Source: a virus. From it: a DNA stretch of 25,638 bases. A program made the translations under genes and the position numbers. Under the pieces are notes generated by a model that made no database searches, was not told the DNA's origin, and was given only the letters and a program-made list of their open reading frames with translations. Below are positions 2,937 to 23,831 of the stretch, piece after piece (positions within the stretch are counted from its first letter, which is position 1; each line of letters opens with the position of its first letter). The DNA lies in the IMG/VR virus record IMGVR_UViG_3300022187_000208, positions 1-25,638 of that record; one strand, 5' to 3'.

Positions 2937-2987
2937 CACGCTAGAGTGTATAGAAAAAGTAAGATCTTATTTAAAAGGAGAAAGTAA

Positions 2988-6826: not shown

Positions 6827-6935
6827 TAAGATAGATAAATTCCTTGAGGATATAACACCCGAAGCACTGCTGGCTGTTACAGTAGGTATGGTTTGTTTCT
6901 GTGCTGGGGTGGCTATAGGGGGTGTATTCTTTTGA
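6810..6935 (+). CDS. Predicted 41-aa membrane protein with TTG start
   Basis: Reading from TTG at 6810 gives 41 residues: a charged amphipathic start (KELIDKIDKFLEDITPE) followed by one hydrophobic helix (LLAVTVGMVCFCAGVAIGGV) and the end FF. AAAGGA (6795-6800) lies 9 bases before the TTG. It overlaps the nuclease stop by 17 bases and its own TGA overlaps the next TTG start (TTGA), matching the operon style. A single-TM small protein might be a holin-like or inhibitor peptide; I cannot say. The TTG start makes this call less certain. Confidence 0.5.
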   Translation: MKELIDKIDKFLEDITPEALLAVTVGMVCFCAGVAIGGVFF

Positions 6936-7183
6936 GAGGAACTAGAGCAAAGAAGCTACGCAGACGATCAGAAGAGATCATCGTAGAGTGGCTAAGGACT
7001 TTAGTGCCAGAGGGTGAAGAGCAAGAAAGGATTAACACTACAAACTATCAAGACTTTCTTCCTGAAGAACTTTACTACCGCGCTAATGGTACTACAAGAC
7101 TACAGGCTATGACACCCAAGTACGTACAGAAGGCTCTTAAGAAGAACCTTAATGTTACATACAAGGACTTGATCAGTGCGTAA
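6932..7183 (+). CDS. Basic 83-aa protein, unknown
   Basis: An 83-residue protein starting MRGTRAKKLRRRSEEIIVEW, basic at the N terminus and mixed afterward, without recognised domain. The TTG at 6932 is favoured because it gives a TTGA overlap with the 41-aa gene and a GGGGG purine run lies about 9 bases upstream. A longer reading from TTG at 6893 would add a Trp/Cys-rich stretch that is the shifted membrane helix of the 41-aa gene. The 3' end overlaps endonuclease I by 8 bases. Its place beside endonuclease I suggests a DNA-related role, but that is context only. Confidence 0.65.
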   Translation: MRGTRAKKLRRRSEEIIVEWLRTLVPEGEEQERINTTNYQDFLPEELYYRANGTTRLQAMTPKYVQKALKKNLNVTYKDLISA

Positions 7184-7613
7184 ACCCAGAAAGGCTAGGC
7201 CTAAGGAGAAGAGAGTACCACGAGGTTACGATAGTAACTTTGAAGCACATCTAGATCAAGAGGTACTAGATGATGATTGGGTACACATCCCTACGCCAGA
7301 CCCTGATCCAGTACCGTATGTTGTAGAGCATACTTACCATACAGACTTCATGAGGATAGAAGATGGTAAGAGGATTTACCTCGAAGCTAAAGGACGCTTC
7401 TGGGATTATCAAGAGCATAACAAGTACGTATGGATTAAGAAGGCCCTGAAAGAAGACGAGGAGTTAGTGTTTCTATTTGCTGAACCTAACGCACCTATGC
7501 CGGGGGCAAGAAGACGTAAGGATGGTACTAAATATAGTCACGCAGAGTGGGCTGACAAGCATGGCTTCAGGTGGTATAGTGAGTATAGCTTACCTGAGGA
7601 ATGGAAGAAATGA
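7176..7613 (+). CDS. T7-type endonuclease I (Holliday junction resolvase)
   Basis: A 145-aa homologue of T7 gp3 (149 aa), which cuts branched DNA and breaks host DNA during infection and packaging. The PD-(D/E)XK-type active site is complete: Glu23 in YDSNFE, Asp57 in HTYHTDF, and Glu70-x-Lys72 in YLEAKGRFW. HTY-TDF and the C-terminal HGFRWYSEYSLPEEWKK match T7 gp3 closely in pattern. The start is GTG at 7176, with AAGGA about 10 bases upstream; no in-frame ATG lies near the N terminus. The gene overlaps the previous one by 8 bases. Confidence 0.93.
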   Translation: MRKPRKARPKEKRVPRGYDSNFEAHLDQEVLDDDWVHIPTPDPDPVPYVVEHTYHTDFMRIEDGKRIYLEAKGRFWDYQEHNKYVWIKKALKEDEELVFLFAEPNAPMPGARRRKDGTKYSHAEWADKHGFRWYSEYSLPEEWKK

Positions 7614-7623
7614 GGAACACGTT

Positions 7624-8193
7624 ATGCCTGTAAATAATAATTTACCATCAGAGGATATAGTAGTAGGGCCTTTCCACGCTGACATAGTTAATAGGTTCTT
7701 TGAGGATACAGGTTCTACTAGAACTGTAACAGTAGGGGATGCCGTTAGCTACGACATCTGGTCGAGGGCTTACAGACGCTACGGAGAAGTCAAGGATAAA
7801 GAACCAAAAGGATATCCTGACAACAACCCTAAGACTTCTGTAGGGGCTACTAAGCTGGACTTGTCTTTAGTGCCAGAGTCTGCTATAATCTGTCTTGCAG
7901 CAGCCATGAAGAATGGTGCTGATAAGTATGGCCCGTTTAACTGGAGAGAACATACCATATCTAGTATGGTTTATATCGCAGCAGTTAAGCGCCATGTAGC
8001 TGCTTGGGTAGATGGTGAGGACTATGCAGATGATTCAGGTGTACATCACCTTGATCATGCAATGGCTTGTCTAGCTCTGTTAAGAGATGCAGAGTCTATC
8101 GGTAAGCTTAATGATAACAGACCACCTAAAGGAGCAGCAGCTAGACTGTTGAAAGAGTATGCGGATAACACTGCTACTGCTACTGTTGGTTAG
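7624..8193 (+). CDS. MazG/MazZ-like dNTP pyrophosphohydrolase (DUF5664-like)
   Basis: A 189-aa all-alpha protein. Residues 77-153 match the phage dATP/dGTP diphosphohydrolase pattern: KLDLSLVP, AMKNGADKYGPFNWRE (94-109), RHVAAWVDGED (123-133) and HHLDHAMACLALL (141-153). Related enzymes of the MazG superfamily cleave dNTPs to dNMP and pyrophosphate; MazZ of cyanophage S-2L does this in the pathway to diaminopurine DNA. Here it may remove an unwanted purine dNTP or feed the RNR/ThyX pool. The first 70 residues are not recognised. The start at 7624 is chosen because GAGGA lies 6 bases upstream; an in-frame upstream start at 7477 lies inside endonuclease I. An extended -10 promoter lies inside the gene. 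Confidence 0.78.
   Translation: MPVNNNLPSEDIVVGPFHADIVNRFFEDTGSTRTVTVGDAVSYDIWSRAYRRYGEVKDKEPKGYPDNNPKTSVGATKLDLSLVPESAIICLAAAMKNGADKYGPFNWREHTISSMVYIAAVKRHVAAWVDGEDYADDSGVHHLDHAMACLALLRDAESIGKLNDNRPPKGAAARLLKEYADNTATATVG
7861..7889 (+). promoter_or_regulatory. Extended -10 promoter inside MazZ-like gene
   Basis: TTGTCT (7861-7866, four of six), a 17-base spacer and exact TATAAT (7884-7889) with TGC before it. The TGCTATAAT core equals those at 4581 and 6635. The start near 7896 would serve the lipoprotein and RNR genes. Confidence 0.5.
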
Positions 8194-8377
8194 CGGATGT
8201 ATGTCAAAGACTCCTTGTGTTGAGAGACTAGACATACCCCTATCAGAATGCTTAGCTACTCACCACAGTAAGCCCTTACCTTCGGGCGGGGTTGTTATAC
8301 GGTGTAAGTTCGGCAAAGAGATTTATGTTAAAGCTGGTGTTAAGATTCCACCAGATCCTTGTAATAATTGGAGATAA
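8159..8377 (+). CDS. Small predicted lipoprotein, 72 aa
   Basis: A 72-aa protein with a classical lipoprotein signal: MRITLLLLLLVSGC, lipobox LVSGC with the acylated Cys at position 14. The mature part is about 58 aa with further Cys residues and KIPPDPCNNW at the end. It should be anchored to a membrane facing the periplasm. Its start lies inside the previous gene (35-base overlap), where CTGCTACTGCTACTG encodes both a Leu run here and a Thr-Ala run there. It could be a superinfection-exclusion lipoprotein or an o-spanin; being in the early block favours the former. Neither is shown by the sequence. Confidence 0.7.
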   Translation: MRITLLLLLLVSGCMSKTPCVERLDIPLSECLATHHSKPLPSGGVVIRCKFGKEIYVKAGVKIPPDPCNNWR

Positions 8378-8378
8378 G

Positions 8379-10256
8379 ATGGATCAGTATCAAACATACA
8401 TACATCGCTCAAGGTACGCTAGATATCTTGACGATAAACAAAGACGAGAGACATGGGACGAGACTGTAGATCGTTACATTCAGTTCTGGGTTGATGAAGG
8501 TAAGCTCAAACAGAGTGCTACTATTACTGAAGAACTGCGTGAAGCTATCTATAACCTCGACATCATGCCCTCTATGCGGTGTATGATGACAGCAGGTGAA
8601 GCCCTTAGGCGAGACAACGTAGCAGGTTATAACTGTTCTTATCTTCCTATTGATAGCCCACGTAGCTTCGATGAGCTTATGTACATTCTACTGTGTGGTA
8701 CGGGTGTAGGCTTCAGCGTAGAAAGAGATTACGTTAACAAACTCCCAGAGGTAGCGGATGAACTCCACGAAACCGACACAACTATCATTGTTTCCGACTC
8801 TAAAATTGGATGGGCCTCCGCTTTCCGTGAGCTTATATCTCTGCTCTATGCGGGTAAGATCCCTCGGTGTGATCTTACAAGAATTAGACCGAAGGGTTCA
8901 CGACTCAAGACTTTTGGAGGCCGCGCATCAGGCCCACAACCGCTATCAGACCTTTTTAACTACGCCGTTGAACTCTTTAGAGGAGCTACAGGACGAAAAC
9001 TTACGAGTCTTGAGTGCCATGATCTCGTCTGTAAGATCGCAGACATCGTTGTTGTTGGAGGCGTTAGAAGATCTGCCCTCATCAGCTTATCAAACGTCAC
9101 TGACCAACGACTTCAAGGGGCCAAGAATGGGCAGTGGTGGTTAACACACGGACACAGGGCTTTGGCTAATAACAGTGCAGCCTATACGGAGAAGCCAGCA
9201 TATGAGACTTATCTTAAAGAAATTACAAGTCTTTATGAAAGCAAGTCAGGAGAGCGTGGGATATTTTCTAGGGTGGCTGCTACTAATGTTGCTGCTAGGA
9301 ATGGTAGGCGCGATACCGATAATATTGCTTTTGGAACTAATCCTTGTTCTGAGATCATTCTAAGACCTTACCAGTTCTGTAATCTGTCTGAGGTAGTAGT
9401 ACGAGCAGAAGACACAGAGGCTACGCTAGCTAACAAGGTGCGGCTTGCTACTGTGCTTGGTACGTTACAGGCTACACTAGTAGACTTCAGATACCTTAGG
9501 AACATCTGGAAAAGAAATACAGAAGAAGAGGCCTTGCTTGGTGTGTCGTTAACTGGTATAATGGACAGCACACTGACTAATGGTACTGATAAGAAAGTGA
9601 CTGCTAAACTACTAAGGGATCTAAAAGATGTGGCTATTAAAACCAATAGTGATTATGCTAGAGATTTTGGTATTAACCCCTCTGCTGCTATTACTTGCGT
9701 TAAGCCTAGCGGCACTGTTAGCCAGTTGGTGGATAGTAGTAGCGGTATCCATCCTCGTTTTGCTAGTGCTTACAGACGAAACGTTAGAGCCGATGATAAA
9801 GACCCACTTGCAATACGTATGGTCGAAGCTGGATTCCCTTATGAGAGGGACATTACAAACCCTAACAACCTTGTATTCGGATTTCCGATCAAGGCTCCGA
9901 AGGGGGCAGTGACTACTAAGGATATGGGTGCACTAGAGCAACTAGAACTGTGGAAGATTTATCAGGACAACTGGTGCGAACACAAGCCCAGCATGACCTG
10001 TTACTACACAGATGATAACTTCCTAGCTGTGGCTCAGTGGGTATGGGATAACTTTGATAGCATCTCTGGTATCTCTTTCTTGCCTTACGATGACCACGTA
10101 TATCAACAAGCACCTTACGAGGAGGTAGATAACGAGACTTACAAGAGATTAGTAAAAGAGATGCCCAAAGGTTTTGAGTGGGACTTTGAAGAACTAGAAG
10201 ATAACACAGAGGGTATGCAAACACTTGCGTGTGTTAGCGGGGTCTGCGAGTTGTGA
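8379..10256 (+). CDS. nrdJ: Class II (adenosylcobalamin-dependent) ribonucleotide reductase
   Basis: A 625-aa enzyme of the monomeric RTPR type (ribonucleoside-triphosphate reductase), which uses vitamin B12 coenzyme to make deoxynucleotides. Redox and radical residues are all in place: Cys86 in GYNCSY, NPCSE with Asn321, thiyl Cys323 and Glu325, Cys334 exactly 11 residues later as in the Lactobacillus enzyme, and a C-terminal CVSGVC pair (Cys618, Cys623) for re-reduction by thioredoxin. VKPSGTVSQLVDSSSGIHPR (441-460) is a conserved family block. The start at 8379 follows GGAG and fits the family; the in-frame upstream start at 8292 lies in the lipoprotein gene. It needs host cobalamin but no oxygen, unlike class I. 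Confidence 0.95.
   Translation: MDQYQTYIHRSRYARYLDDKQRRETWDETVDRYIQFWVDEGKLKQSATITEELREAIYNLDIMPSMRCMMTAGEALRRDNVAGYNCSYLPIDSPRSFDELMYILLCGTGVGFSVERDYVNKLPEVADELHETDTTIIVSDSKIGWASAFRELISLLYAGKIPRCDLTRIRPKGSRLKTFGGRASGPQPLSDLFNYAVELFRGATGRKLTSLECHDLVCKIADIVVVGGVRRSALISLSNVTDQRLQGAKNGQWWLTHGHRALANNSAAYTEKPAYETYLKEITSLYESKSGERGIFSRVAATNVAARNGRRDTDNIAFGTNPCSEIILRPYQFCNLSEVVVRAEDTEATLANKVRLATVLGTLQATLVDFRYLRNIWKRNTEEEALLGVSLTGIMDSTLTNGTDKKVTAKLLRDLKDVAIKTNSDYARDFGINPSAAITCVKPSGTVSQLVDSSSGIHPRFASAYRRNVRADDKDPLAIRMVEAGFPYERDITNPNNLVFGFPIKAPKGAVTTKDMGALEQLELWKIYQDNWCEHKPSMTCYYTDDNFLAVAQWVWDNFDSISGISFLPYDDHVYQQAPYEEVDNETYKRLVKEMPKGFEWDFEELEDNTEGMQTLACVSGVCEL
9534..9562 (+). promoter_or_regulatory. Possible extended -10 promoter inside RNR gene
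   Basis: Exact TATAAT (9557-9562) with TGG before it, giving an extended -10, but the -35 region 17 bases upstream is only TTGCTT. It would make a transcript covering the 3' part of the RNR gene and the small genes after it. Weak evidence. Confidence 0.28.
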
Positions 10257-10823: not shown

Positions 10824-11209
10824 AAACATACGATAGAGTATTATCTATGCCTACAGAAAAAGAACTACTAAAAGCTGAGATAGCTTATAAGCAAGATATA
10901 CTAGATACATGGCACAAAGACCAGTCTGGCGACGGGCCTTGGAGAAGATACAGAAATCTCCTTATGTTAAAGGAAATTTTGAGTGTCTTTCCTCCAGATC
11001 AGTATAGAGTCTGTGGTCATCCAGCCGGGGTCATTATAGACAATAAATGGATAGTGACTCTGCTATCTAAGAAGTGGAGAGTTAACGGTAAAAATAAATG
11101 GTATCGTTTAAAGAGCTTTGAGGAATTCAGGGATCGCTTTGTTAATAAGTCCAAAGAGCAGAAGGCTTTGAATCATCTCGATCAAGATGAACAAACACAT
11201 TCTGATTAA
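10820..11209 (+). CDS. Hypothetical protein, 129 aa, last gene of the left block
   Basis: A 129-aa basic protein with many aromatic residues. It starts MKTYDRVLSMPTEKELLKAE and has WHKDQSGDGPWRRYRNLLML, VCGHPAGVIIDNKW and KKWRVNGKNKWYRLKSFEEF. The pattern VIIDNKWIVTLLSKKWRV suggests a beta-hairpin; no enzyme motif is seen. It is the last rightward gene, and its final 68 bases run through the 3' end of the opposing M15 peptidase gene, so both strands are coding there. No terminator hairpin with a T-run was found beyond it. Function unknown. Confidence 0.65.
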   Translation: MKTYDRVLSMPTEKELLKAEIAYKQDILDTWHKDQSGDGPWRRYRNLLMLKEILSVFPPDQYRVCGHPAGVIIDNKWIVTLLSKKWRVNGKNKWYRLKSFEEFRDRFVNKSKEQKALNHLDQDEQTHSD

Positions 11210-11492
11210 CACCTATCCTTTTACATCCCATGCTCGATGCAATCTCAATAAGCTTAATAGCATCGGCCCCGCCTACTTTAATGTCTACAGCCCGACCAGT
11301 ACTATGTGCTCCGGGCTTAGACTTCTTCTTCTCGATAGGATGCTCAGGACACCGATAACCTGACGTTACTACCATAGGCTTGCCGTAAGCATGACGGACT
11401 ACATCAAGCCACTCCATGAACTCTTGATCCCAATTCTCAGCCCCGCAGTGTTGACACTTCATCTCGTCTGATGTAAAGTATCTACTGGTCAT
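11142..11492 (-). CDS. M15-family zinc peptidase, probable endolysin
   Basis: A 116-aa single-domain peptidase of the M15A type (D-Ala-D-Ala carboxypeptidase/L,D-endopeptidase fold). It shows VTSGYRCPEH (42-51) and the zinc ligands His63 and Asp70 in GAHSTGRAVDI plus His102 in FVHLD. Phage members cut peptide cross-links of peptidoglycan at lysis. There is no signal peptide or wall-binding domain, so it would need a holin; a holin-like gene lies upstream at 23865-24263. An N-terminal CQHC pair (13-16) is present. It is the final gene of the leftward block, overlaps the preceding zincin by 11 bases and overlaps the opposing 129-aa gene by 68 bases. Confidence 0.87.
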   Translation of the reverse strand: MTSRYFTSDEMKCQHCGAENWDQEFMEWLDVVRHAYGKPMVVTSGYRCPEHPIEKKKSKPGAHSTGRAVDIKVGGADAIKLIEIASSMGCKRIGVNQNVFVHLDRDDSKPSALWTY

Positions 11493-11775
11493 CTACTACT
11501 ACACTCCTATCGTACTGTAACCAAGCATGAGCTAGGCCGTCTACTAAAACCTCATCATGTTCTCGTATGCCTAATGAGTATAGCATAGCATGTAAGATCT
11601 CATGACGTAGTGTTAACTCTTTGAACTCCTCAGACTTAAAAGGTTTAACCAAATAGATTGTAGCTGTCTCTTCACAGCACCAACCATGAACCTTAGAGTC
11701 ATCTACATTCTTCCTGAACCAACTCTGGGAGACTTCTTCGACTACCCAATTCCTCGGCCCAAGAGTGAAGTTCAT
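11482..11775 (-). CDS. Small HEILH zincin-like metalloprotein
   Basis: A 97-aa protein with HEILH at residues 58-62 (zinc-binding HExxH) in LTLRHEILHAMLYSLG, followed by HDEVLVDGLAHAW, in which Glu75 could be the third zinc ligand. The layout resembles the minimal catalytic helices of ImmA/IrrE-like and other phage zincins. It has no signal peptide. The start overlaps the stop of the 2117-aa gene (ATGA), and the end overlaps the M15 gene. It could act on a virion protein, on peptidoglycan with its neighbour, or on a host regulator; sequence alone does not decide. Confidence 0.7.
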   Translation of the reverse strand: MNFTLGPRNWVVEEVSQSWFRKNVDDSKVHGWCCEETATIYLVKPFKSEEFKELTLRHEILHAMLYSLGIREHDEVLVDGLAHAWLQYDRSVVVDDQ

Positions 11776-14700
11776 CTATACTTCCTCTTAAGGGCATTAA
11801 GGATTAACCCTGAACCTTCAAAGGCATCAGGAACCTGCATAGTAGACTGATTAAGGGGTGGATTAACAATATCAGCAGCACCTGACTCTTCAACCATAGG
11901 GGGCTTAGGTATCTCTACCATGCCACCCGCCATATAACCTTCCCTGTCTTCACCATCCTGATAGAAAGGACTCTTACCTTCTTTCATCCGTTTCATGGCA
12001 TGTTCTTTAGCCTTAATGATGATTGACCTTGGGATGTTCTTAGCATTACCTTCAAGCTGCATGTTTGATAAGATCTCTACTTCTTCAGGAGTCAGTGTAG
12101 GAACCATAGTAGGGATTTCTATCTCTTCTCCTTCTATTTCTATTCCTACAGAAACCTCAGTCATGGTTCCACCCTGCACCTTATTTTCTACAGGCCCTAA
12201 ATAACCACGAGCAGATTTCTTAGCGCCATCTCGTCGGTACATAGAAGGGTCTTCTTCTACTCTACCACCTTCTGAGTACTTACTACGGAGCCTTACAAGG
12301 CCTCCCATAGCCTTAGATACCCTAGGGTCTGTTATATCAAAGGACTCTGCTCTGGTGGACTTGAGTTGATTACCACTAAACAATATCCAAGACTTCCTTG
12401 ATGACCCTACACCCGCAGCCTCAATAGTATTATTGTACTCGATAGAATCAAATCCAAAGTCTTTAAACCAATCCTGTAGTTCTCTGTTAACCTTATAGAC
12501 TGCCGCTTCATACAGGGTTTTGTCCTTAACAGAATCACTATAAGCTTCTTTAGGTACTTCTATTTCACTAAGCTTTGCCAACTCAGTATCAGATATCGGT
12601 CTATTAAGCTGCTTCTCAACGGCTTGCATAAGAGGGTGCATCTCTTTGTTAACACGTACTCTGTAGCTTTCGATAACAGCATCTACTGCGTCTATGTTAA
12701 CATTAAAGTTCTTCATCTCTGAGACAAGTCCTGAGGTATCGGAGTCCCGCATTTTGGTGATGATATAGTCTTGGATCAGATCAATGGCTTCATCATCTTC
12801 TGCATCAAACACAGTAGAGTAGTTGATGTTTTTGTAAATAGCTTCTGCTGCTTCCATCGGGCGGTACATTCGACTGCGGTACTCTGATCGTCCTAACATA
12901 TCAGGTATCAAATCCTGAGCAGCCCAGCCACTAGGCATATCTACATCTACAATTAATGGGTTCTTAATGCTGATGTAGTAGTCTGAGATAGAAGGGGCAG
13001 GTGCGCTTCCTCGCGTTTGTATAGATTCAGATTCAAAAAGCCTCTTACCTATTTTAAAGTTATAAAACGAAGGGGGCATTTTAGTCTGTATTAAGTTGGA
13101 GTCTCGCCACCGTACTGTATCTTCAATATATTTATCAAAAGATTCTAGGTCGTTGTAGTTAAGAGTGAGTTCTCCATTATCTCCTTTAGTAAATGACGGT
13201 ACTTCCTCTAGTAGTTCCTCGTAATCAGGCTTACTTGAAATAATCTCATCAAAATATTTTGACTCTGCGGGAGTTAGTGTCACGCTTTTCTTTACTGACC
13301 CAAACATCTTCTCAGGATCTGTCTCGGCTAACATACGCTCTCTGGCTTCTGGAGAGAGGTTCCTGTCAGTTGTGTTATCTACATAGCGTATAACATCATC
13401 CCCATAGAGGATAGCTTCAGCCTGTACAGGATCATCTGCTACGTGTATGCCAATCTCTCTTGGGTTCTCACCTGCGTTAACCAACTCACGAGTAGGCTTA
13501 TCGTTAGTAGTTGCACGAAAGACTTTCTCTTTGTGCTTAGAACCACGCATAAATTTAGAGGGGTTAGCTTCTGGCGTAGGAAATACATCAGGAAAGGCTA
13601 TAGATTTATCTCCTTCTTCAGACAGTAACTTCGTAGGTCTAGTCTTAACATAGTCAAATGAGTCTGGGTCGGCCTGTTCAGACCACCTAATGCCGGGGCC
13701 TGATCCGTGTTCTGAAGAAATAAATCTAACAGGAACTTTAGTAACACCCTTAGCCTTAAGAGCATTCATCCTGTGTCTACCTTCGTGACCTACGACTTTA
13801 GCAGTACCTTCTCCGTCATTCTCAAACTTAAGGAAAGGTACATCATCGAACTTACCGCCTTCATCTAGGTGCTCGACAAGCTTTGTAGTACTCTTTCCGA
13901 ACTCAGTATCATCACCTAGTTTTCTAGCCATGTCAAGGAATTCGTCTGGAGACATGAGCACTACAGTCTCTCTGGACTTATGTTTAATAGAGAGAGAATC
14001 AAAAGCTACATCGTTAAAGTACTCAGCCCCTTCCATCTGCTTAACGTCAGACATCTTAGGTAAGCGTTTAGGGGTTTCTCTAACCCTACGCACAATCGAG
14101 TCAGGCACTGGACGTATGTGTTCATTCAAGAACTCAGCAGACTTCTCATCAATCAGAGTAAGTTTCTTAGCATACTTAAGGTCTTTACCTGAACTAAGAA
14201 TCTTGAACACCTCAGGATTAAGAGGCCCAGACGCTGCCATAGATTCCTTTAAGTTCTCTTGTGCTGCCTTACCTTGAGGTGCTGTATCGTAGTAAACATC
14301 AGCATCGTCTATAGTACGCCACATCTCCTTAGCTTCGGGGCCTAAGTTCTTAGCAGCATACAAGGGCCTGTATCCATCGTTGTAGGTATTCAATACCTCG
14401 TCACGAGTGTATAGGATTATATCGTCATACTCATCCTTCGTAATGTCCGTCTTAATCGGACTCTCGCCCTTAGCCATCTGAACATTATCCACCTCAACCA
14501 TATGAGAGAAGTTCAGTTTCTGGTCTTCGCTTATGCCGTACTTCTTCATAAGCTCATCACCCTCGAAGGAATCTAGCGGGATGATTCTATGTACGTCACC
14601 TCGATCATACGTACCCTTACGCTGCTGCCTATGCTTAGGCGTAGACTTATTGCTTACCATGAAAGAGATCTCGACAGGTTTGTCAAGGTCTTCCGTCTTC

Positions 14701-17700
14701 AGCGGGTTTCCTGCTAGACTTTCTAGCGCCCTCATGTTAGCTACTTCAGGAGTATCTGGCCTAAATAGGTGGCGCAAGTGAGGGACAATAGTCTTAGATA
14801 CCTTAGATGCTAAGCCTCCAAGAACAAAACCTATCCTATCTGCTGTATCGCTATAAGATTCTCCAGTGTAAGGGTTTCTTCGTTCAGTAGGATCAGAAGG
14901 AAGGCCCGGAAAATCTACTACACCGCCTTCAGCAAAAGCACCTCTTGAACTTTTACCGCCGCCTATTTTACCATCAAACCCCAGATCTTTATCTAGTTCT
15001 CTAAGCCACTTATCATACGCTTGCCGAGTTCCCTTACCACCAATAGCGTCCATAGCGGCATAGCCGGGAATCATTGTCCCAGCAGTACCCATAGGGCCTG
15101 ATCCATATCTAATAGACCTAGCTATATGACTAGGTAAGGGACCAAACATCCCGACACCATGCCCCACAATACCGTACCTATCTCCAGCTTGTTTAGATCT
15201 TAAAGCTACGTCAGCTATGATACCGTGTCCACCCCACCTAACCACGCTGTCTACTAAGATTTCATCGGGGTCTTTATTAAGAGACTCTCCTTGGCTTCTA
15301 GTCATGTTACCAATCGTAGCAACTGCGGTCATGACCCCTGCTGTCCCCAAAGTCCTAGCATTCTGGACAAGAGCATCATCCCCTCCTAAACTCCTAGCCA
15401 TCTTCTTCAATACCACATTTGAGAAAGCCGTGGGATAACTCATTAACTGGAACAACAGACCAGTAAACGGGTGGTTCATCACGTTAGGTTTAAGAACATT
15501 CGTTCTATTAGGGTGCAGGATAACACCAGACGTATAACGTGCAGCCGCCCTCTCGATGCTCTTGAAGTACGCATCGTCCTTAAGAGCACCGCGAGTAACC
15601 CACTCAATACCTTCTTCGGGGGAGATACCTAAGTCAGCCAACTCATTAAGCAATCGAGTCCTTCTAGCTGCTCTCATGTACGGCTTAGCGCCTGCATGTG
15701 CTGCGTCCTTAGCAAGCTCCTTCAGGTTCGTCTGTACAATATCATGTCCTGCGTGATAAGCACTCATCTCTACGAACTTCGTCCAGTCCGTAAGGGCAGT
15801 AACTTTAAAGAAACCGTTCTGGAGCTTACGTGCTGTCTTGCTCGACATCTTATAGCCTGTCAAGCCTTCTACTCTGTCCTGTGCTGCTCGGCTAGTAGCA
15901 ATATTAAACCTAGCCATCGTATCCCAAATTTCTGGCTTAGTCATATTGTGTTTGACTTGCAGAGTTTCTAGCATATCAAGACCAAGCTTTTTATTAGCTT
16001 TAGCCACCATACTATTATAGCCAGTTACAGCACCATAAGCTGTTGTTTTACCTGCAACTTTAAGAGAAGACCCTACACCTTTAATCGCTTGAGTAGGTGT
16101 GGCGTTTAAGGTTAACAGGGCCACCTCAGACAGGGACGAGAGCGTTGCTAAAGGAAGCAACGACATCTGGTATCCAAGCATTACCCCATCTACCCACGGC
16201 TTGAAGGTGGGCGAGATACCTTGTACTTCGTTGGCTGCAATCTGATAGGTTTGGTTAAGTAGGTTCCTCTCACCCGCCGATAAGCCTGCGCCTTCTGCTC
16301 TAATTCCAGAAGCCTCCAGCTCTAGGGCAATATTATCCAACCATTTCTCATTAAACTGAGCGCCGTTCTTAACGCCTAAGGTTTCTACTAAACCAAGTTT
16401 ATGTCCATGATCAAAGATATAGTCCAGCATAACTTCCTCAACATTATTGTCAAGGAATTTAGAGAACATATTATCGTCTTTAATATCTTCAAGGGATCTT
16501 GAAGGAGAGAACGCTGGTCTTCCTGCCTCCAATGATTGCCCCTCATTAGAGACAGCCAACATATCACGGTATATTTTAGAAGCTACTTGTCTAGCATTAA
16601 CTAGCGTCTTTGTTTCAGGATCAATCTTTGGCTTTGCTTGCCCAGACGCAACCAGAAGATCAAGGAACTCTTCTCTGTTTTCTTGCATGACCTTCCGGTT
16701 CCAGACACGAGGCACGTAGTTCTCGTGAAAACCTATGTCGATATCCAGTGCCTTAGCATGGCCGTGCATAAGGTCGAGGTTTTCTCTAATCTGATCGCCT
16801 GCTTTTTTAATAGCGTCATCAGGGTATTGACCATCAAAAGATAGCTCCCCGCCTCGGAGGTAGTACATCAAGCGATTATTAACTGAATCATCTACCTTGT
16901 TAGTCAGCGGATCTTTAAGAGTATCGAATGCTTTCTTAAAGTTTACTGCGTAATGACCAGTGATTTCATTGACAGCCTCGCCCATAGTTCGACCAGCTAC
17001 CTCACGCTCTCCTCGTAACGGACGAGCCATATCATAGGACAGAGAATTCATCAGCTTCTTAGCAGTGGGAGAGTATTTGGATAACTCTACAAGAGCGCCC
17101 GTAGGCTTACCATACGTTTTAGCTAAAGCATACCTAGCTTTTTGTGTAGCTTCAAAGACCGTAGGGCTGTTCATTATTTCTTGAAACTTACCACTAGACT
17201 TTACAACCACATCGTCTACAATCTCGTCAGTCTCCATGAACTTATCGACTGCGCGGCTATCGAGATACCTACCACCAGCCCATCCCAACGTGCCGCCTAA
17301 GACCGTACCAGTACCTGTTGTAATCAGGTTCTGCTCAAAGTCAAACTCTTCTTTGGCACCAACATTAATATCAGTGATCTGCTCGGCTGCGTCAATCGCA
17401 CCGGAACCAGCACCGGCCTCAATAGCCCCGAAGGAAGCACCCTTTAAGGCGATATTTCTTTTAACCTGCTCTTGTGTAATCTTATTTGCAGTAAGCATCA
17501 TAAGTTGACGCGTTGTTACACTCGTACCGCCAGTGAACGCAGCAGTTAACAGAGCTACTTGTGATATCGGGTCAGTAATACCCTGATAAGTATACTCAAA
17601 GATAGCATCTCTCCACTCAGCAAACCCCTCAAGCTCAGCGTTATCAAACATATCTTTAAGCTCGAAGTAAGCTTGTGCTTCTTCAGGCGACCAGACTTTT

Positions 17701-18125
17701 GATTCAATCGCCATCTGGATAGCTTCTGTAGTATTAGCGCCTCTTGCCCTAAAAGCTTCTATAGCACTCATACCCCCAAGAGCTAAGCCTGCTTTTTCTG
17801 ATAGTTCAATAAACCTCTCATCAGATTCTAGCTCAGTGATGCTCATCTGCTCAGGGTCTTCGATCAAAAACTCATAGGCTTCTTCTCCCCACTTAGAGAG
17901 CTTCTCGCCTATTGTCTGAGGTTTTTCTTCGGGCGCAACGACCTGAGCTTGCTCTATAGAATCAGCTTCGTCAATACTAAACCCAGATTTAAATTCTTCT
18001 TCTTCGTTTAGAGAGAAGCCGGATTTAAACTCATACTCATCTGTTTTAAATCCAGACTCAAACTGAGCATCGTCTTCTTCCCCTAGGCTGAACCCGGAGG
18101 TAAACTCATAATCTTGGTCAGACAA
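11772..18125 (-). CDS. Giant multidomain internal-virion-like protein, 2117 aa
   Basis: The largest gene here. Residues 8-52 carry four imperfect copies of EF-SGFS. Residues about 70-1050 are mostly helical with Gly/Ala-rich hydrophobic patches (196-206, 270-286, 650-700) and HENYVPRVWNR (467-477), as in large phage ejection or polyvalent proteins. Residues 1363-1470 contain VVGHEGRHRMNALKAKG with VPVRFIS, resembling ParB/sulfiredoxin-fold domains. Residues 1534-1935 resemble ADP-ribosyltransferase-like polyvalent domains (IGIHVADDP, YYISIKNPLIVDVD, GFDSIEYNN, LFSGNQLKS). The end (1969-2012) has GGTMTEVSVG and IPTMVPTLTPEE. The start is TTG at 18125, supported by GAGAGG 7-8 bases upstream; the next Met is at residue 94. 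It probably enters the host with the DNA. Domain calls are by eye. Confidence 0.75.
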   Translation of the reverse strand: MSDQDYEFTSGFSLGEEDDAQFESGFKTDEYEFKSGFSLNEEEEFKSGFSIDEADSIEQAQVVAPEEKPQTIGEKLSKWGEEAYEFLIEDPEQMSITELESDERFIELSEKAGLALGGMSAIEAFRARGANTTEAIQMAIESKVWSPEEAQAYFELKDMFDNAELEGFAEWRDAIFEYTYQGITDPISQVALLTAAFTGGTSVTTRQLMMLTANKITQEQVKRNIALKGASFGAIEAGAGSGAIDAAEQITDINVGAKEEFDFEQNLITTGTGTVLGGTLGWAGGRYLDSRAVDKFMETDEIVDDVVVKSSGKFQEIMNSPTVFEATQKARYALAKTYGKPTGALVELSKYSPTAKKLMNSLSYDMARPLRGEREVAGRTMGEAVNEITGHYAVNFKKAFDTLKDPLTNKVDDSVNNRLMYYLRGGELSFDGQYPDDAIKKAGDQIRENLDLMHGHAKALDIDIGFHENYVPRVWNRKVMQENREEFLDLLVASGQAKPKIDPETKTLVNARQVASKIYRDMLAVSNEGQSLEAGRPAFSPSRSLEDIKDDNMFSKFLDNNVEEVMLDYIFDHGHKLGLVETLGVKNGAQFNEKWLDNIALELEASGIRAEGAGLSAGERNLLNQTYQIAANEVQGISPTFKPWVDGVMLGYQMSLLPLATLSSLSEVALLTLNATPTQAIKGVGSSLKVAGKTTAYGAVTGYNSMVAKANKKLGLDMLETLQVKHNMTKPEIWDTMARFNIATSRAAQDRVEGLTGYKMSSKTARKLQNGFFKVTALTDWTKFVEMSAYHAGHDIVQTNLKELAKDAAHAGAKPYMRAARRTRLLNELADLGISPEEGIEWVTRGALKDDAYFKSIERAAARYTSGVILHPNRTNVLKPNVMNHPFTGLLFQLMSYPTAFSNVVLKKMARSLGGDDALVQNARTLGTAGVMTAVATIGNMTRSQGESLNKDPDEILVDSVVRWGGHGIIADVALRSKQAGDRYGIVGHGVGMFGPLPSHIARSIRYGSGPMGTAGTMIPGYAAMDAIGGKGTRQAYDKWLRELDKDLGFDGKIGGGKSSRGAFAEGGVVDFPGLPSDPTERRNPYTGESYSDTADRIGFVLGGLASKVSKTIVPHLRHLFRPDTPEVANMRALESLAGNPLKTEDLDKPVEISFMVSNKSTPKHRQQRKGTYDRGDVHRIIPLDSFEGDELMKKYGISEDQKLNFSHMVEVDNVQMAKGESPIKTDITKDEYDDIILYTRDEVLNTYNDGYRPLYAAKNLGPEAKEMWRTIDDADVYYDTAPQGKAAQENLKESMAASGPLNPEVFKILSSGKDLKYAKKLTLIDEKSAEFLNEHIRPVPDSIVRRVRETPKRLPKMSDVKQMEGAEYFNDVAFDSLSIKHKSRETVVLMSPDEFLDMARKLGDDTEFGKSTTKLVEHLDEGGKFDDVPFLKFENDGEGTAKVVGHEGRHRMNALKAKGVTKVPVRFISSEHGSGPGIRWSEQADPDSFDYVKTRPTKLLSEEGDKSIAFPDVFPTPEANPSKFMRGSKHKEKVFRATTNDKPTRELVNAGENPREIGIHVADDPVQAEAILYGDDVIRYVDNTTDRNLSPEARERMLAETDPEKMFGSVKKSVTLTPAESKYFDEIISSKPDYEELLEEVPSFTKGDNGELTLNYNDLESFDKYIEDTVRWRDSNLIQTKMPPSFYNFKIGKRLFESESIQTRGSAPAPSISDYYISIKNPLIVDVDMPSGWAAQDLIPDMLGRSEYRSRMYRPMEAAEAIYKNINYSTVFDAEDDEAIDLIQDYIITKMRDSDTSGLVSEMKNFNVNIDAVDAVIESYRVRVNKEMHPLMQAVEKQLNRPISDTELAKLSEIEVPKEAYSDSVKDKTLYEAAVYKVNRELQDWFKDFGFDSIEYNNTIEAAGVGSSRKSWILFSGNQLKSTRAESFDITDPRVSKAMGGLVRLRSKYSEGGRVEEDPSMYRRDGAKKSARGYLGPVENKVQGGTMTEVSVGIEIEGEEIEIPTMVPTLTPEEVEILSNMQLEGNAKNIPRSIIIKAKEHAMKRMKEGKSPFYQDGEDREGYMAGGMVEIPKPPMVEESGAADIVNPPLNQSTMQVPDAFEGSGLILNALKRKYR
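17970..18104 (-). repeat. Four imperfect EF-SGFS peptide repeats at the N terminus
   Basis: Residues 8-52 of the 2117-aa protein contain FTSGFSLGEED, FESGFKTDEY, FKSGFSLNEE and FKSGFSIDEA, spaced 14, 11 and 12 residues apart in an acidic, probably disordered tail. The DNA copies are similar but not identical, so the peptide rather than the DNA seems to be conserved. Confidence 0.75.
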
Positions 18126-18128
18126 AAT

Positions 18129-19937
18129 TTAGCCTCTCGTTTGAGAAAACTTTTTAAGGAAAGAATAGAACGAACCTTCCCCGGCGAGGGCGCTAGCATT
18201 ATACGTTTCTTTTTCTAAGTACCTAAGCCATGTCATATTTCCAGAAGCCTTAACAGCGTCGAGTCGGCCCACGAGCTTCTGCACTTCCTCTGGAGTCATG
18301 GATTTAATTTCTTCGTAGTGCTTCTGTCCGGCCCCCATCAGAGCCTCGAAGTCTTTCTTAGAAATCACCGCTTCGTTAGATTCTGCAATAGCAACAATAA
18401 CTTCGACACCTGAGTTAATGACAGGTTTAAGGTGCGCGCTAGGATCACCCCCTTCCCAACTGTCCCAAAAAGTACCGATATCTATCTCTTTAATAGCACG
18501 ATTAGCAAACGCTTGGCCCGTAACACGACTAAGATCTACTTGGTACTCTGTCTCTAGTTGACGAGTTCGCTTTGCTGTAGCATCTAGCACAAGCTGAAAC
18601 CCAGAGTTATCTTCGCCTCCGAACCGAATCTTATCGTCAAGAGTATCAGTATATTCTTCTAAAGCAGCTTTGTTTTCTTCACCGAAGTAGGGAGAAATCC
18701 TAGACTGAAACTCATCGAGGTCTTCTTTAGGGAGTCGCTGAAAGTCAGCAGGCTTATCCACTTTAATTGTTTTAGTAGATCCTCCAGCCTGATCAGATAC
18801 CATTGTTGTTGTCACCTTAAAGGTAATACCGTTGATATCTTCAAGAGATTCAGCAGTTTCTGTCACAGGCCAGAAGCCAGCGAGACTACCATACTTAGCT
18901 TGGTCGGCTTCGTTCACAAACTTAGCCCCGCTAGATTCAATAACCGTATTACCAGTAGGATCTACCGTCTTTGTTACATCCCGGTACATCTCCACGCCTT
19001 TGTGGATAAAGGTTTCTTGCTTAGTCTCTGTTTTAGATTCTTTATATGCCTCAAAGAGTCTACGATCTTCTTCTGTAGGAAACTCGTAGTCAGTCTTCTT
19101 AGTGCCATCTGAAGCTTCTCGTGTAACTTTAAAAGAACGGAACGGCCTCTCGTCACTAGGAAGCTGCTCGTCCCTTGCGGTTACCTTGAACACATTGGTT
19201 TCTACCTTAGCCAACTTATCCTTGTACTTAACATAGTTCTCAGCGGCAAAGTCATCACCTGTAGACAGCAGGACATTCTCAGCTTCATTAATAATCTTAG
19301 CACTCTGAGCATAAGGGCTTAATTCAAGAGACCTAAGGTACTCTCGTTGATAATCTTCTTTAGACTTACCACGGATTTTAGCGCCTATAATCTCAAACAT
19401 ACTATCAGGTCGTTTGTCTACACTGGCTAAATAAGCATCTCGTTCTTGTGCCGTACCCAACATAGGAATAGCAGCCCTAGCTTTCTCATGAGCGCCGTAC
19501 ATTTTCTCCGCAATCTTATAACCTTCTCCGTGGTAAAAAGATTCTAATTGCTTTTCGCTAGGTCTGTCAATACCCTGATCTCTGAAGTACTGGTCAGCCA
19601 TTGATTCGATACGAGGACGAACCTTAGTCGTGTAGAAGTAATCTACTCCGTTACCTTCAAACTTATCAATCTCTTTTTGTCTAGCTACTGTACGCTCGGC
19701 TGACATAAGGGCTGTATTGTGCTTAGCTCGTGCCGCAAATACACTTTCATTAGTAGCCCAATCCTTAACCTTATCATCAAAAAAAGATTTAGCTACTCCA
19801 GCCCCAAGCTGAAGACCCAGCCCCATCAACAGAGCCTTACGCTGATCTTTCTTAGCACGTTTCTCCTGCTTACGTACTCGCTCAATCTTACCAGAGAGTA
19901 AGCTCTCACCTAGTTCTGTAATGTCTGGTCTTGCCAT
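18129..19937 (-). CDS. Probable internal virion protein, 602 aa
   Basis: A 602-aa, highly charged, mostly helical protein without recognised enzyme motif. It starts MARPDITELGESLLSGKIER, has a basic coiled region at 17-34 and a short Gly/Leu-rich hydrophobic patch (ALLMGLGLQLGAGVAKSFF, about 35-53) that could meet a membrane. Its place between structural-type genes and directly before the 2117-aa gene matches that of T7 gp15 before gp16, and its size is close to gp15-type proteins, so an ejection-channel role is a fair inference. AGGA lies about 8 bases before the ATG. Four bases separate it from the 200-aa gene; 3 bases separate it from the TTG of the 2117-aa gene. Confidence 0.65.
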   Translation of the reverse strand: MARPDITELGESLLSGKIERVRKQEKRAKKDQRKALLMGLGLQLGAGVAKSFFDDKVKDWATNESVFAARAKHNTALMSAERTVARQKEIDKFEGNGVDYFYTTKVRPRIESMADQYFRDQGIDRPSEKQLESFYHGEGYKIAEKMYGAHEKARAAIPMLGTAQERDAYLASVDKRPDSMFEIIGAKIRGKSKEDYQREYLRSLELSPYAQSAKIINEAENVLLSTGDDFAAENYVKYKDKLAKVETNVFKVTARDEQLPSDERPFRSFKVTREASDGTKKTDYEFPTEEDRRLFEAYKESKTETKQETFIHKGVEMYRDVTKTVDPTGNTVIESSGAKFVNEADQAKYGSLAGFWPVTETAESLEDINGITFKVTTTMVSDQAGGSTKTIKVDKPADFQRLPKEDLDEFQSRISPYFGEENKAALEEYTDTLDDKIRFGGEDNSGFQLVLDATAKRTRQLETEYQVDLSRVTGQAFANRAIKEIDIGTFWDSWEGGDPSAHLKPVINSGVEVIVAIAESNEAVISKKDFEALMGAGQKHYEEIKSMTPEEVQKLVGRLDAVKASGNMTWLRYLEKETYNASALAGEGSFYSFLKKFSQTRG

Positions 19938-19941
19938 AATC

Positions 19942-20544
19942 TTATCCTAAAAGGGACTCTTCTTCAGGGGGCATATCTACCCCTTCATTGTCATTTAAAA
20001 CCTCTGCAGCAGGCTCAGATTGCGTCTGAGGGGCTAATAGAGAGGTAGGTGCCTCATCTATCTTATCCTCGATTTCTTTGGGTAAAGCACCTTGAGGTAC
20101 TTTCTTGGACTCTGGAGCCTTAGATGCTATAGCTTCTTTAAAGCTAGAGATATCAGTACTATCTTCATCCTCGTCAGGCTCATCATCAATTCTGAAGTCA
20201 ATCTCTGCTCGTTCAGCCAGTGCCATGAACATATAGGCTACAGGCTCAGCAAGCAGCAGCATCATGTCTGGGTTCCACTTACCAGCTCTAAACCCTTGAT
20301 ACAGAAGATTTTGTGTAAGCTCCATAACCGAAGCCTCCCCGGAATCGAGGAGGTTCATCATAGGCACATACGTATCTTCTTCAATGAGTTTCCCAAAGAC
20401 CCACTCCTGAGCCTGCTTGAGATTAGTAAACTGAGGAGGCTTCTCGTAAGCTGCTGGATTCTCAGGATCATTAGTCAAACTCTGGCCGGGGATGGGTCGT
20501 TGGAACTTAGCCATCTCCTCGGCTACTCTCATGTCTGTGCTCAT
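19942..20544 (-). CDS. Acidic virion-associated protein, 200 aa, unknown
   Basis: A 200-aa protein. The N terminus has FQRPIPGQSLTNDPENPAAY and KPPQF, a Pro-rich block I associate with marine phage structural-region proteins. A helical middle (60-117) is followed by a very acidic, low-complexity tail (DDEPDEDEDSTD, then Pro/Glu/Ala-rich), probably disordered. Placement between the 324-aa and 602-aa genes, with an ATGA overlap upstream, argues for a virion or assembly role. It might be a chaperone or scaffold for the helical proteins around it. Function is not known. Confidence 0.6.
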   Translation of the reverse strand: MSTDMRVAEEMAKFQRPIPGQSLTNDPENPAAYEKPPQFTNLKQAQEWVFGKLIEEDTYVPMMNLLDSGEASVMELTQNLLYQGFRAGKWNPDMMLLLAEPVAYMFMALAERAEIDFRIDDEPDEDEDSTDISSFKEAIASKAPESKKVPQGALPKEIEDKIDEAPTSLLAPQTQSEPAAEVLNDNEGVDMPPEEESLLG

Positions 20545-21515: not shown

Positions 21516-23831
21516 TTAAGAGCCTCCACTCATCATATCACCAAATGTTTTAACAATCGTATCAATCTTAGAGAACGAAGTGCTACTAGGGTTCTCGTGG
21601 CTAAGGGCAGTAGCATACAGGTTAGTAGCATTAGTCTGGTAAGCAATATAAGACTGCTGATCAAACGCTGCCTCGTCCCTAAGCTGCTGCCACATCATAC
21701 TAAGAGCACTAGTCTCTAGGTTAAAAGCATTCATAGCATTCTGCTGGTTAATCGCATTAGCCGCTGCCGTGTCTGCTGTATTAGCCTGTCGCCTCCAGTT
21801 GACATTACTCTGCTCAATAGCCTGAGCATTAGCAGCATTCCACTGATCTCGTTGGAACTCTACTTGAGCATTGAACTGCTGAGTCTGTGTGTCTAGCTGA
21901 GCATTAAACTTAGCAGCCTCTTGTTCCATGCCAGCTTCTTGTAACTGAGCCACGTTGAACTGCTGAGCATTAAACTGCTCCATCTGATTAGCAGCCGCAG
22001 CATTCTGCATATTAACCTGATTGGCTAGGTTAGCCATAAAGGTCATTACTTGATTCTCTGAAGCTGCGTTGAACTGCTTAGCTGCATTAACAGCAGCTTG
22101 GTTACTTAGGAGCTTCTGCATCTGGCTCTGTGTATTGAGCATCTCCATCTGCTGCTCGTTGCTCAGGTTAGTAACATCCATCTGTAGGAAGTTACGAGCA
22201 TTCTCAATCTGTACACGAGTCAGAGCATCTGCATTAGCCAGATCCTGAGAGGCCAGAAGTGTAGCTTCTTGTAAGGCTGCTTGCTGTGCGTTGTTAACAT
22301 TAGTCAGTACAGCAGTCTGCATCCATTTAGAGTTAGCCAGTTCAACCTGCTGGGCAGCATTAAACTTAGCCATGTCCATACCAGCCTGAGTACTGGCATT
22401 GTAGATAGCAGTCTGCTGAGCAGCGTTAAGGTTAGCTACTCCGATCTCAGAAGCAATCTTAGCATCTAAGGCCCTGAGTTCTGCATCAGTCTGAAAGGCT
22501 ACTACGGCATTCTGAGAGTTAAGCTGAGCTTCAGTAACATCTACTTGTGTCTGCAACTGAGCACGAGTAATCTCTGCTTGTTGTCTGTTCTGGAGATTAA
22601 GGTTAGCTCGTTCTTTCAGGGCATTAGCATTACCCTGAGCAATCGGTAATGCCGCAGATACAATAGCACTAAACAGTGCTGTCTGTCCTACTGTAGAGGC
22701 TGACATACCTCTAGCAGCCATCTGTGCTTCTACTGCACTGACAGCAGGCAAGGCCCACGAAGGAGTCTCACCGTTTTCCATACCCTGTAGGAGGTTATCA
22801 ATCTGTGTAGATACAAGAGCTTCTGTTGGCAGCTCAGCTACTTGAGCCTGTACCTCTGGCTCCATGATGTCTACGTCTTCTAGTTTAGGTAGACCTGTCT
22901 TATCTACTTTAACTTCACCAGCCTGTACTGCCTTAGCAAAAGCCCCTTGAGATAACACACCATCAACGACTTTAGCCTGAGACTCTAACATCTCTCTGTT
23001 AGTAACAGCAGACTCTTTAACGTCTATTGGCTTCTCAGATAAGATAGCCTCTGCTATTCTAGATACTTCACCTGTAGCAGCTTCACCTACTGCGGCCTCT
23101 TGAATCTGTTGAGCACCGTAAGTAGTAGCCTTCTTAGGGTCTAACTGAGGTGTATCAGTAAGTACACCTTCTTTGGTTTTAATAGTAACATCTTCAGAAA
23201 CACTACTTGCTGTAACGTCTGTTTGTTCTCCTATCTGCTCAGCAGGCCCAGAGACAGTACCTTCAGGCAGTTGACCATCTTTAACAAGCTTCTCTTGTGT
23301 GATCTGAGTATCTGCTGAAAGTTTCTTTTCGCCAGAAGCGTATTGTTCTAAAGCCTTTTGTGTGCCTTCTGGATCAACACCCGGAGAAACAGAATCTTTA
23401 CCGCCGCCTGTAGGAGGAACAACAGTAGAACCAGTAGGGCCTACGTATTGCGTACCTGTCCAAGTAGCACCCTTAACATCACTTAAGGGATCTTTAACAC
23501 CACCGCTAGGGTTCTTAGCCTTCCAATCTTCATAGCCACCCCAACTTCTGAACTCTTCATCAGATATGTGACCATCTTTATCTGTATCCTGAACACCTAG
23601 ATTAAATGCTGCCATGTCATCAGGAGAGGCATTAGGAGCCGCGCCTGCTGCAATAGCTGCTTTAACCTCATCGGATTGAGGAACAGAAGTAGTAGTAGGT
23701 TGTCGGGGGTTTGAAGAAGGAAGATTCTTACGACCACCTGCTTTTACAGCACCTTCTAACATCTTAGGATCAATCATCCCAACAGCACCGCCAGTTTGAT
23801 ATCCTTTCCTTTTAGATTTCTTTCTAGCCAT
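21516..23831 (-). CDS. EF-hand and hendecad-repeat virion protein, 771 aa
   Basis: Residues 1-20 are basic, then YQTGGAVG. Residues 82-93 are a textbook EF-hand loop (DTDKDGHISDEE) with all Ca2+-liganding positions filled. Residues 110-340 are Pro/Thr/Ser/Val-rich and probably extended. Residues 411-707 are 27 uninterrupted 11-residue units, Ala/Gln/Asn-rich, with Asn at position 2 in 18 units; this predicts a long helical rod. The C terminus (708-771) is helical, ending FGDMMSGGS. It is likely a structural rod or ejection-tube component. The ATG at 23831 has no ribosome-binding site and lies 8 bases after a -10 box, so its mRNA may be leaderless. Confidence 0.7.
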   Translation of the reverse strand: MARKKSKRKGYQTGGAVGMIDPKMLEGAVKAGGRKNLPSSNPRQPTTTSVPQSDEVKAAIAAGAAPNASPDDMAAFNLGVQDTDKDGHISDEEFRSWGGYEDWKAKNPSGGVKDPLSDVKGATWTGTQYVGPTGSTVVPPTGGGKDSVSPGVDPEGTQKALEQYASGEKKLSADTQITQEKLVKDGQLPEGTVSGPAEQIGEQTDVTASSVSEDVTIKTKEGVLTDTPQLDPKKATTYGAQQIQEAAVGEAATGEVSRIAEAILSEKPIDVKESAVTNREMLESQAKVVDGVLSQGAFAKAVQAGEVKVDKTGLPKLEDVDIMEPEVQAQVAELPTEALVSTQIDNLLQGMENGETPSWALPAVSAVEAQMAARGMSASTVGQTALFSAIVSAALPIAQGNANALKERANLNLQNRQQAEITRAQLQTQVDVTEAQLNSQNAVVAFQTDAELRALDAKIASEIGVANLNAAQQTAIYNASTQAGMDMAKFNAAQQVELANSKWMQTAVLTNVNNAQQAALQEATLLASQDLANADALTRVQIENARNFLQMDVTNLSNEQQMEMLNTQSQMQKLLSNQAAVNAAKQFNAASENQVMTFMANLANQVNMQNAAAANQMEQFNAQQFNVAQLQEAGMEQEAAKFNAQLDTQTQQFNAQVEFQRDQWNAANAQAIEQSNVNWRRQANTADTAAANAINQQNAMNAFNLETSALSMMWQQLRDEAAFDQQSYIAYQTNATNLYATALSHENPSSTSFSKIDTIVKTFGDMMSGGS
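21711..22601 (-). repeat. 27 tandem 11-residue (33-bp) degenerate repeats
   Basis: Aligning residues 411-707 of the 771-aa protein in blocks of 11 gives Asn at position 2 in 18 of 27 blocks and Asp or Glu in five more, often with Ala at position 3. The register never slips across the whole array. Clear units are FNAQLDTQTQQ, FNAQVEFQRDQ and WNAANAQAIEQ. Repeats are conserved in protein rather than DNA. Confidence 0.8.
23553..23588 (-). other. Canonical EF-hand Ca2+-binding loop in the 771-aa protein
   Basis: Residues 82-93, DTDKDGHISDEE, fit the 12-residue loop: Asp at 1, 3 and 5, Gly at 6, Ile at 8 and Glu at 12. The flanks (DDMAAFNLGV before, FRSWGGYEDW after) can form the E and F helices. 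Only one clear hand is seen. Confidence 0.75.

What the first reader, a model, noticed from the sequence alone, without database searches (positions are those of the whole stretch)
21711..22601. 27 uninterrupted 11-residue repeats in a phage virion protein
Residues 411-707 keep an exact 11-residue register, with Asn at position 2 in 18 of 27 units. Hendecads give straight or right-handed coiled coils, rarer than heptads. A rod of 297 residues could reach roughly 44 nm if fully helical (0.15 nm per residue), enough to span the cell envelope. The Asn ladder may form an internal polar core along the rod.
Basis: partly seen in the sequence, partly recalled or inferred. Interest (0 to 1): 0.68.

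Follow-up and report, generated by a model that had tools for sequence, protein, structure and literature searches.

The report
Register-locked hendecad coil in phage ejection gene
A protein of a marine short-tailed virus of bacteria carries a long 11-residue repeat whose length in relatives changes only in exact steps of 11, which suggests a very long helical coil, possibly the wall of a tube that delivers the viral DNA into the cell.

Summary
In detail: residues 411-707 of a 771-aa minus-strand ORF hold 27 eleven-residue units, Asn at position 2 in 18 (lag-11 z 6.1). The family occurs in HMO-2011-type podophages and many marine viral contigs, always first in an ejection-like gene cluster (86).

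The register is locked. Between conserved anchors flanking the array, 162 of 162 distinct homologues have a length equal to 6 mod 11, over 14 lengths from 171 to 644 residues; a tree needs at least 14 length changes. No proline occurs in about 49,000 array residues, against 6.6% in N-terminal parts of the same proteins.

The helical wheel has two opposite hydrophobic seams, a charged face and an amide face. That fits a large helical barrel better than a trimer, and puts Asn-2 on a shoulder, not in a core. The pattern matches the DNA pilot protein H of phage phiX174, in register (61). A DNA-conducting tube is my best guess (about 0.45).

AlphaFold of the monomer instead breaks residues 470-586 into short helices every 22 residues (89), so one unbroken 44-nm rod is not shown. 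I found no virion proteomics or structure.

The parts
21516..23831 (-). ORF of the hendecad protein, 771 aa (P0001)
   Evidence: ORF list and translation; homologous to HMO-2011 gp25, HTVC103P gp59, CHOED gp13 and others
21711..22601 (-). 27 hendecads, residues 411-707
   Evidence: autocorrelation z 6.1 at lag 11; 0 Pro; register conserved in homologues
22602..22874 (-). conserved helical domain just before the array, residues 320-410 (P.WA..A......M..RG...S......A...AI..SALPIAQ)
   Evidence: alignment; AF2 pLDDT 77-91 for its first half
22626..22652 (-). upstream anchor of the length test (ALPIAQGNA, residues 394-402)
21789..21809 (-). downstream anchor of the length test (SNVNWRR, residues 675-681)
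22074..22424 (-). middle section, residues 470-586: AF2 predicts short helices at 22-residue spacing
   Evidence: pLDDT mostly 77-87 to about residue 570, lower after; 22-residue alternation of unit types
21723..22058 (-). C-terminal section, residues 592-703: AF2 predicts one 112-residue helix
   Evidence: pLDDT about 61-80
21519..21710 (-). C-terminal tail, residues 708-771, predicted helical
   Evidence: alignment, AF2
22875..23831 (-). variable Pro/Gly-containing N-terminal part, residues 1-319
   Evidence: 25 Pro in residues 1-410 of this protein; low pLDDT
20541..21515 (-). 324-aa partner with a basic amphipathic/hydrophobic N-terminus; present in part of the family
   Evidence: weak PHROG tape-measure matches; HMM hits in 84 loci, always next in order
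19942..20544 (-). 200-aa partner, the most constant neighbour
   Evidence: HMM hits in 103 loci and in all 16 phage loci examined
18129..19937 (-). 602-aa partner, diverged
   Evidence: HMM hits in 38 loci
11772..18125 (-). 2117-aa giant protein at the end of the cluster, internal-virion-protein-like
   Evidence: PHROG 7348 (E 4.5e-73, 'endolysin') and PHROG 6958 (E 1.3e-12, virion structural protein); HMM hits in 75 loci

Best explanation
The protein is an internal ejection (pilot) protein of an HMO-2011-type podophage. Its hendecad array forms long parallel alpha-helices that pack side by side through two hydrophobic seams (positions 9/5/1 and 3/7/11) into a large-bore helical barrel. Charged positions 6 and 10 face out; Gln/Ser/Thr/Asn at 8 and 4 line the bore; Asn-2 sits at the outer edge of one seam, probably bonding to the neighbouring helix. 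On infection the barrel would form the DNA conduit through the envelope, as the H tube does in phage phiX174, with the partner genes serving as membrane ends and inner-membrane part. Shown by sequence: the periodicity, register lock, absence of proline, two-seam wheel and conserved gene order. Inferred: oligomer, bore, DNA passage and presence in the virion.
For: 162/162 homologues keep the anchor distance at 6 mod 11 over 14 lengths while other distances in the same proteins are spread over all residues mod 11; at least 14 length changes on a tree; 0 Pro in 27,005 + 22,011 array residues against 6.6% in N-terminal parts. Hydrophobic/Ala content peaks on two opposite sides of the 11/3 wheel, charge is highest at 6 and 10 (41% each), which are also the most variable columns. 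A coarse packing model improves steadily from trimers/tetramers to 12 helices and puts 4/8 in the bore. phiX174 H matches the family's hendecad profile at z 5.4, 0 of 1,000 shuffles, in the register that puts H's Gln 1/8 on positions 8/4; T7 gp15/gp16 and P22 gp7/gp20/gp16 do not. The H tube is lined by Asn, Gln and Arg (PMC7354561) and podophage Sf6 gp12 forms a decameric channel into whose stem the H tube fits (PMC4755594). The gene starts an invariant cluster ending in a giant internal-virion-like protein.
Against: AF2 with 48 sequences breaks residues 470-586 into short helices (pTM 0.36). No sequence homology to H or to any solved structure and no fold match in the PDB (94). The packing model is crude: on H itself it does not distinguish 2 from 10 helices (71), and its preference for large n only rises to the limit tested. 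The longest arrays (about 97 nm if helical) exceed any envelope. Array length does not track the lengths of partner proteins (97). No evidence that the protein is in the virion.
Confidence: 0.45

Rival explanations
1. The array is wholly or partly a helix-turn solenoid with 22-residue coils (two hendecads per turn), so that Asn-2 of every second unit stacks in a ladder between coils; only the C-terminal third is a long helix.
For: AF2 with 48 sequences gives helices starting every 22 residues at 470-586, the most confident part of the array. Lag 22 exceeds lag 11 in most homologues and two unit types alternate in 62% of arrays at z > 2. Several length steps are multiples of 22, including 110-residue duplications.
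Against: No proline in about 49,000 array residues and 1.3% Gly, whereas the turns would make up about a third of the section; helix propensity of the alternating part is as good as that of the C-terminal part. Lengths fall in both classes mod 22, so odd 11-residue steps occur. Monomer AF2 often forces repeats of oligomeric coils into intramolecular packing (general knowledge). No fold match.
Confidence: 0.2
2. A dimeric or trimeric coiled-coil rod, such as a tail needle or fibre shaft, with polar core layers of Asn.
For: Phage needles are trimeric coiled coils that vary in length (general knowledge); the gene lies near the tail-fibre genes of HMO-2011; in the classical a-d-e-h assignment (a = 9) Asn-2 would be a core position.
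Against: Two opposite hydrophobic seams with poor fit for 2-4 helices; no knob or receptor-binding domain after the array, only about 64 helical residues; the cluster downstream is ejection-like.
Confidence: 0.15
3. A structural core or scaffold-like protein inside the capsid that organises ejection proteins around the portal, without ever conducting DNA.
For: Same gene neighbourhood; core stacks are known in T7 (PMC8954989), and helical proteins surround the portal in phage DEV (PMC10925440); array length is free to vary fourfold (49).
Against: Strict register over up to 644 residues is more than a spacer needs; the similarity to H in composition and register (61).
Confidence: 0.2

Closest known systems
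DNA pilot protein H of phage phiX174 (Microviridae; PDB 4JPP)
   Same: Parallel-helix coil with hendecads rich in Gln/Asn; the family's 11-position profile matches H residues 142-204 far above shuffles, in the register that aligns H's Gln 1/8 with family positions 8/4.
   Different: H has three hendecads followed by heptads (120 residues); the family has only hendecads, 171-644 residues between anchors. No sequence homology was detected. H serves an ssDNA phage.
DNA-injection protein gp12 of Sf6 / gp20 of P22
   Same: Podophage ejection-cluster protein; Sf6 gp12 forms a decameric tube with a predicted coiled-coil stem (PMC4755594).
   Different: P22 gp20 shows no match to the family's hendecad profile and no 11-residue array.
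Internal virion protein gp14 of T7
   Same: Short protein early in the ejection cluster; weak hendecad-profile match at 10-53 (z 3.8, 1 of 1,000 shuffles).
   Different: No long array; the match weakens over 66 residues (20 of 1,000 shuffles); homology was not tested by profile comparison.
HMO-2011 gp25 and homologues in pelagiphages, roseophages, CHOED, MQM1 and Slicky01
   Same: Direct homologues, same array and gene order.
   Different: All annotated 'hypothetical protein' or given an uninformative label; array length differs in multiples of 11.

Membership tests
HMO-2011 gp25-type hendecad protein family | sequence homology over the pre-array domain and array | tested here: met
   tblastn E down to 8e-58 in phages; 16 and more than 500 viral-contig relatives
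HMO-2011 gp25-type hendecad protein family | array length 6 mod 11 between anchors | tested here: met
   281 residues in the window protein; 162/162 in all
HMO-2011 gp25-type hendecad protein family | conserved cluster order | tested here: met
   one order in 112 loci, allowing absences
Podophage ejection (internal virion) proteins | genes between tail genes and a giant gp16-like protein | tested here: met
Podophage ejection (internal virion) proteins | presence in the virion and release into the host | not testable with these tools
   no proteomics found in the paper library
Podophage ejection (internal virion) proteins | sequence or fold homology to T7 gp14/15/16, P22 gp7/20/16 | tested here: inconclusive
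   no Pfam/PHROG/PDB sequence match and no PDB fold match; the fold of the model is itself uncertain
phiX174 H-type DNA pilot tube | sequence homology | tested here: not met
   profile search of the PDB did not return H at E up to 10
phiX174 H-type DNA pilot tube | hendecad pattern with amide residues on the lumen face | tested here: met
   profile match z 5.4, 0/1,000 shuffles, same register; lumen assignment of H's Gln is my reading of PMC7354561
phiX174 H-type DNA pilot tube | about ten parallel helices around a 22-25 angstrom bore | not testable with these tools
   only indirect, from a coarse packing model
Trimeric tail needle / fibre | single hydrophobic core seam | tested here: not met
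   two opposite seams

The most novel reading that the evidence does not exclude
A dsDNA-phage counterpart of the phiX174 H tube that arose independently: an amide-lined helical barrel made only of hendecads, whose length is quantised in 11-residue (about 1.65 nm) steps from about 26 to 97 nm, partly by tandem duplication of 110-residue blocks, in one of the most abundant marine phage groups.
Probability: 0.3. Interest if true: 0.82.

Novelty: new variant of a known kind. Interest (0 to 1): 0.62.

Why it matters
[quoted passage not shown] The exact 11-residue quantisation gives a sharp, cheap test of whether the array is one continuous register-locked coil. If it is an amide-lined tube, two unrelated phage types converged on the same chemistry for passing DNA, and this family would offer natural length variants from 171 to 644 residues for studying it.

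Tried and rejected
Full-length AF2 with 13 sequences: pLDDT 40, not usable. Foldseek of the 452-residue model: no PDB match, and only the family itself in viral models, with tape-measure proteins next but not significant. Pfam, PHROGs, NCBIfam and PDB sequence searches with the protein: nothing. PDB search with the family profile: only KMP-11 at E 2.5, judged chance. Idea that array length matches lengths of partner proteins: no correlation. Idea that apparent register jumps in some homologues are true breaks: they cancel to zero, and end-to-end length stays 6 mod 11. Idea that other podophage ejection clusters carry the same array: of 592 ORFs of 80 aa or more in stretches of nine phages and the window, only family members score above zero. 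A trimer with an Asn core: disfavoured. A second anchor test for members lacking the downstream motif gave too few and doubtful anchors. I prepared an alignment of the 602-aa neighbour for folding (75) but used the last folding job on the array.

Full report
Observation. The array is on the minus strand in a 771-aa ORF (window 21516-23831). Residues 411-707 map exactly to 21711-22601. They form 27 units of 11 with Asn at position 2 in 18. Identity autocorrelation reaches z 6.1, 6.1 and 4.8 at lags 11, 22 and 33 and stays below z 1 at all other lags up to 40. TRF finds no DNA repeat, so the period is maintained at protein level.

Family. No Pfam, PHROG, NCBIfam or PDB sequence matches the protein. 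tblastn finds homologues in 19 phage records, including HMO-2011 (SAR116), pelagiphages HTVC103P/104P/115P/033P, CRP roseophages, Slicky01, Aeromonas phages 1233 and MQM1, and Vibrio CHOED, all called hypothetical or unhelpfully labelled. The window itself has no near DNA match among phage genomes and is a 25,638-base virus record.

Register. I fixed two conserved anchors, SALPIAQ-like before the array and SN..WRR near its end, and measured the distance in every distinct homologue. In the first set 69 of 69 distances are 6 mod 11, with 13 different values from 171 to 644. Distances from the start to the first anchor, or from the second anchor to the end, are spread over all residues mod 11. 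In a second set fetched afterwards 93 of 93 are 6 mod 11 and add a fourteenth length, 358; most of that second set (83) share one length, 226, so it adds fewer independent events than its size suggests. A tree of 66 members needs at least 14 length changes. Freely gapped pairwise alignments place single gaps of 11, 22, 33, 44, 55 and 110 residues; one distant pair gives 92 + 95, again a multiple of 11 in sum. The 534- and 644-residue classes show a strong lag-110 signal, so part of the growth is tandem duplication of ten hendecads. Duplication alone would also give multiples of 11, so the rule is evidence of a register-locked array but not by itself proof of selection.

Helix content. No proline occurs in 27,005 array residues of the first set or 22,011 of the second, against 6.6% (1,938 of 29,530) in the N-terminal parts of the same proteins. 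Cysteine is absent from both parts, so its absence is not specific to the array. Glycine is 1.3%. AF2 with 48 sequences (pLDDT 73, pTM 0.36) gives helices at 383-463 and 592-703 (112 residues), but between them short helices whose starts are spaced by 22 residues. This is the one result that speaks against a continuous rod. It coincides with a real 22-residue alternation of two unit types, one with Leu-3 and Asn-5, one with Ala-3 and Met-9. I lean towards a continuous helix because turns with no proline in any of 162 sequences would be odd, and because helix propensity in the alternating part is no worse than in the C-terminal part. A monomer prediction of an oligomeric coil cannot settle it.

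Wheel. At 11 residues per three turns, hydrophobic plus Ala content is high at 9, 5, 1 on one side and 3, 11 on the other. Positions 6 and 10 are 41% charged and the most variable. Positions 4 and 8 are Gln/Ser/Thr/Asn/Ala with 15-16% charge. Position 2 is Asn in 67% and the most conserved column class. One-seam dimers to tetramers fit this poorly (r 0.16-0.29); the fit rises with helix number up to the largest tested, 12 (r 0.53-0.58), with 4 and 8 facing the bore and Asn-2 near the outside. The model is coarse and did not single out ten helices for phiX174 H, so it argues against one seam rather than for a number.

Comparison with H. Among ejection proteins of phiX174, T7 and P22, the family's 11-position profile matches H at z 5.4 over 44 residues (none of 1,000 shuffles), T7 gp14 weakly (z 3.8; z 2.3 over 66 residues) and the others not convincingly. 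The best register puts H's Gln 1 and Gln 8 on positions 8 and 4. H residues 151-271 form a decameric tube 170 angstroms long whose inner surface is mostly Asn, Gln and Arg (PMC7354561). Sf6 gp12, a podophage DNA-injection protein, is a decamer with a 25-angstrom channel whose stem fits the H tube (PMC4755594). No homology to H was found, so this is likeness of pattern, not membership.

Context. In 112 loci the order is always hendecad gene, then (where present) the 324-aa, 200-aa, 602-aa and giant proteins. The giant protein matches PHROG 7348 and PHROG 6958, annotated endolysin and virion structural protein. This is the layout of podophage ejection clusters, which diverge rapidly (PMC8954989), but no partner was shown here to be a T7 or P22 ejection protein.

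Conclusion. Established here: a hendecad array with locked register across a large phage family. Likely: continuous helix over most of it (about 0.75) and a role in ejection (about 0.75). Best guess for mechanism: an H-like amide-lined DNA tube (about 0.45).

Noticed in passing
23781-23801 (-), and within 11772-18125 (-): A short motif [MYF]x(1-2)GGx[VI] (here YQTGGAV near the N-terminus) occurs in 115 of 174 hendecad proteins against about 8 after shuffling, and in 49 of 75 giant partner proteins, but in 1 of 103 of the 200-aa, 2 of 39 of the 602-aa and 7 of 84 of the 324-aa partners. It could be a shared packaging or processing signal; 96 of 440 other long ORFs in the loci also match.
   Followed up: partly
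23553-23588 (-): A perfect EF-hand loop (DTDKDGHISDEE, residues 82-93) in the variable N-terminal part; 9 of 174 relatives have a similar loop.
   Followed up: partly
19942-20544 (-): The 200-aa neighbour is the most constant partner (103 loci and all 16 phage loci) yet matches no Pfam or PHROG family.
   Followed up: no
3158-4350 (+): Two adjacent sulfotransferase-family genes (PF03567) in a phage genome.
   Followed up: no
1-10256 (+): Opposite-strand half carries ThyX, DNA polymerase A, an alpha/beta hydrolase of the BD-FAE type, an RNase H-like exonuclease and a B12-dependent ribonucleotide reductase.
   Followed up: no
11142-11775 (-): An M15 peptidase (PF08291) follows the giant gene, next to a 97-aa HExxH-type protein matching PHROG 1233.
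   Followed up: no
L111, L002 and other 534/644-length loci: Arrays of 534 and 644 residues contain 110-residue tandem duplications (ten hendecads).
   Followed up: partly
L122-L135: The family also appears in contigs binned as Campylobacteraceae, Maricaulis, Flavobacteriaceae, Blastopirellula and others, mostly MAG contigs that may be phage contigs.
   Followed up: no
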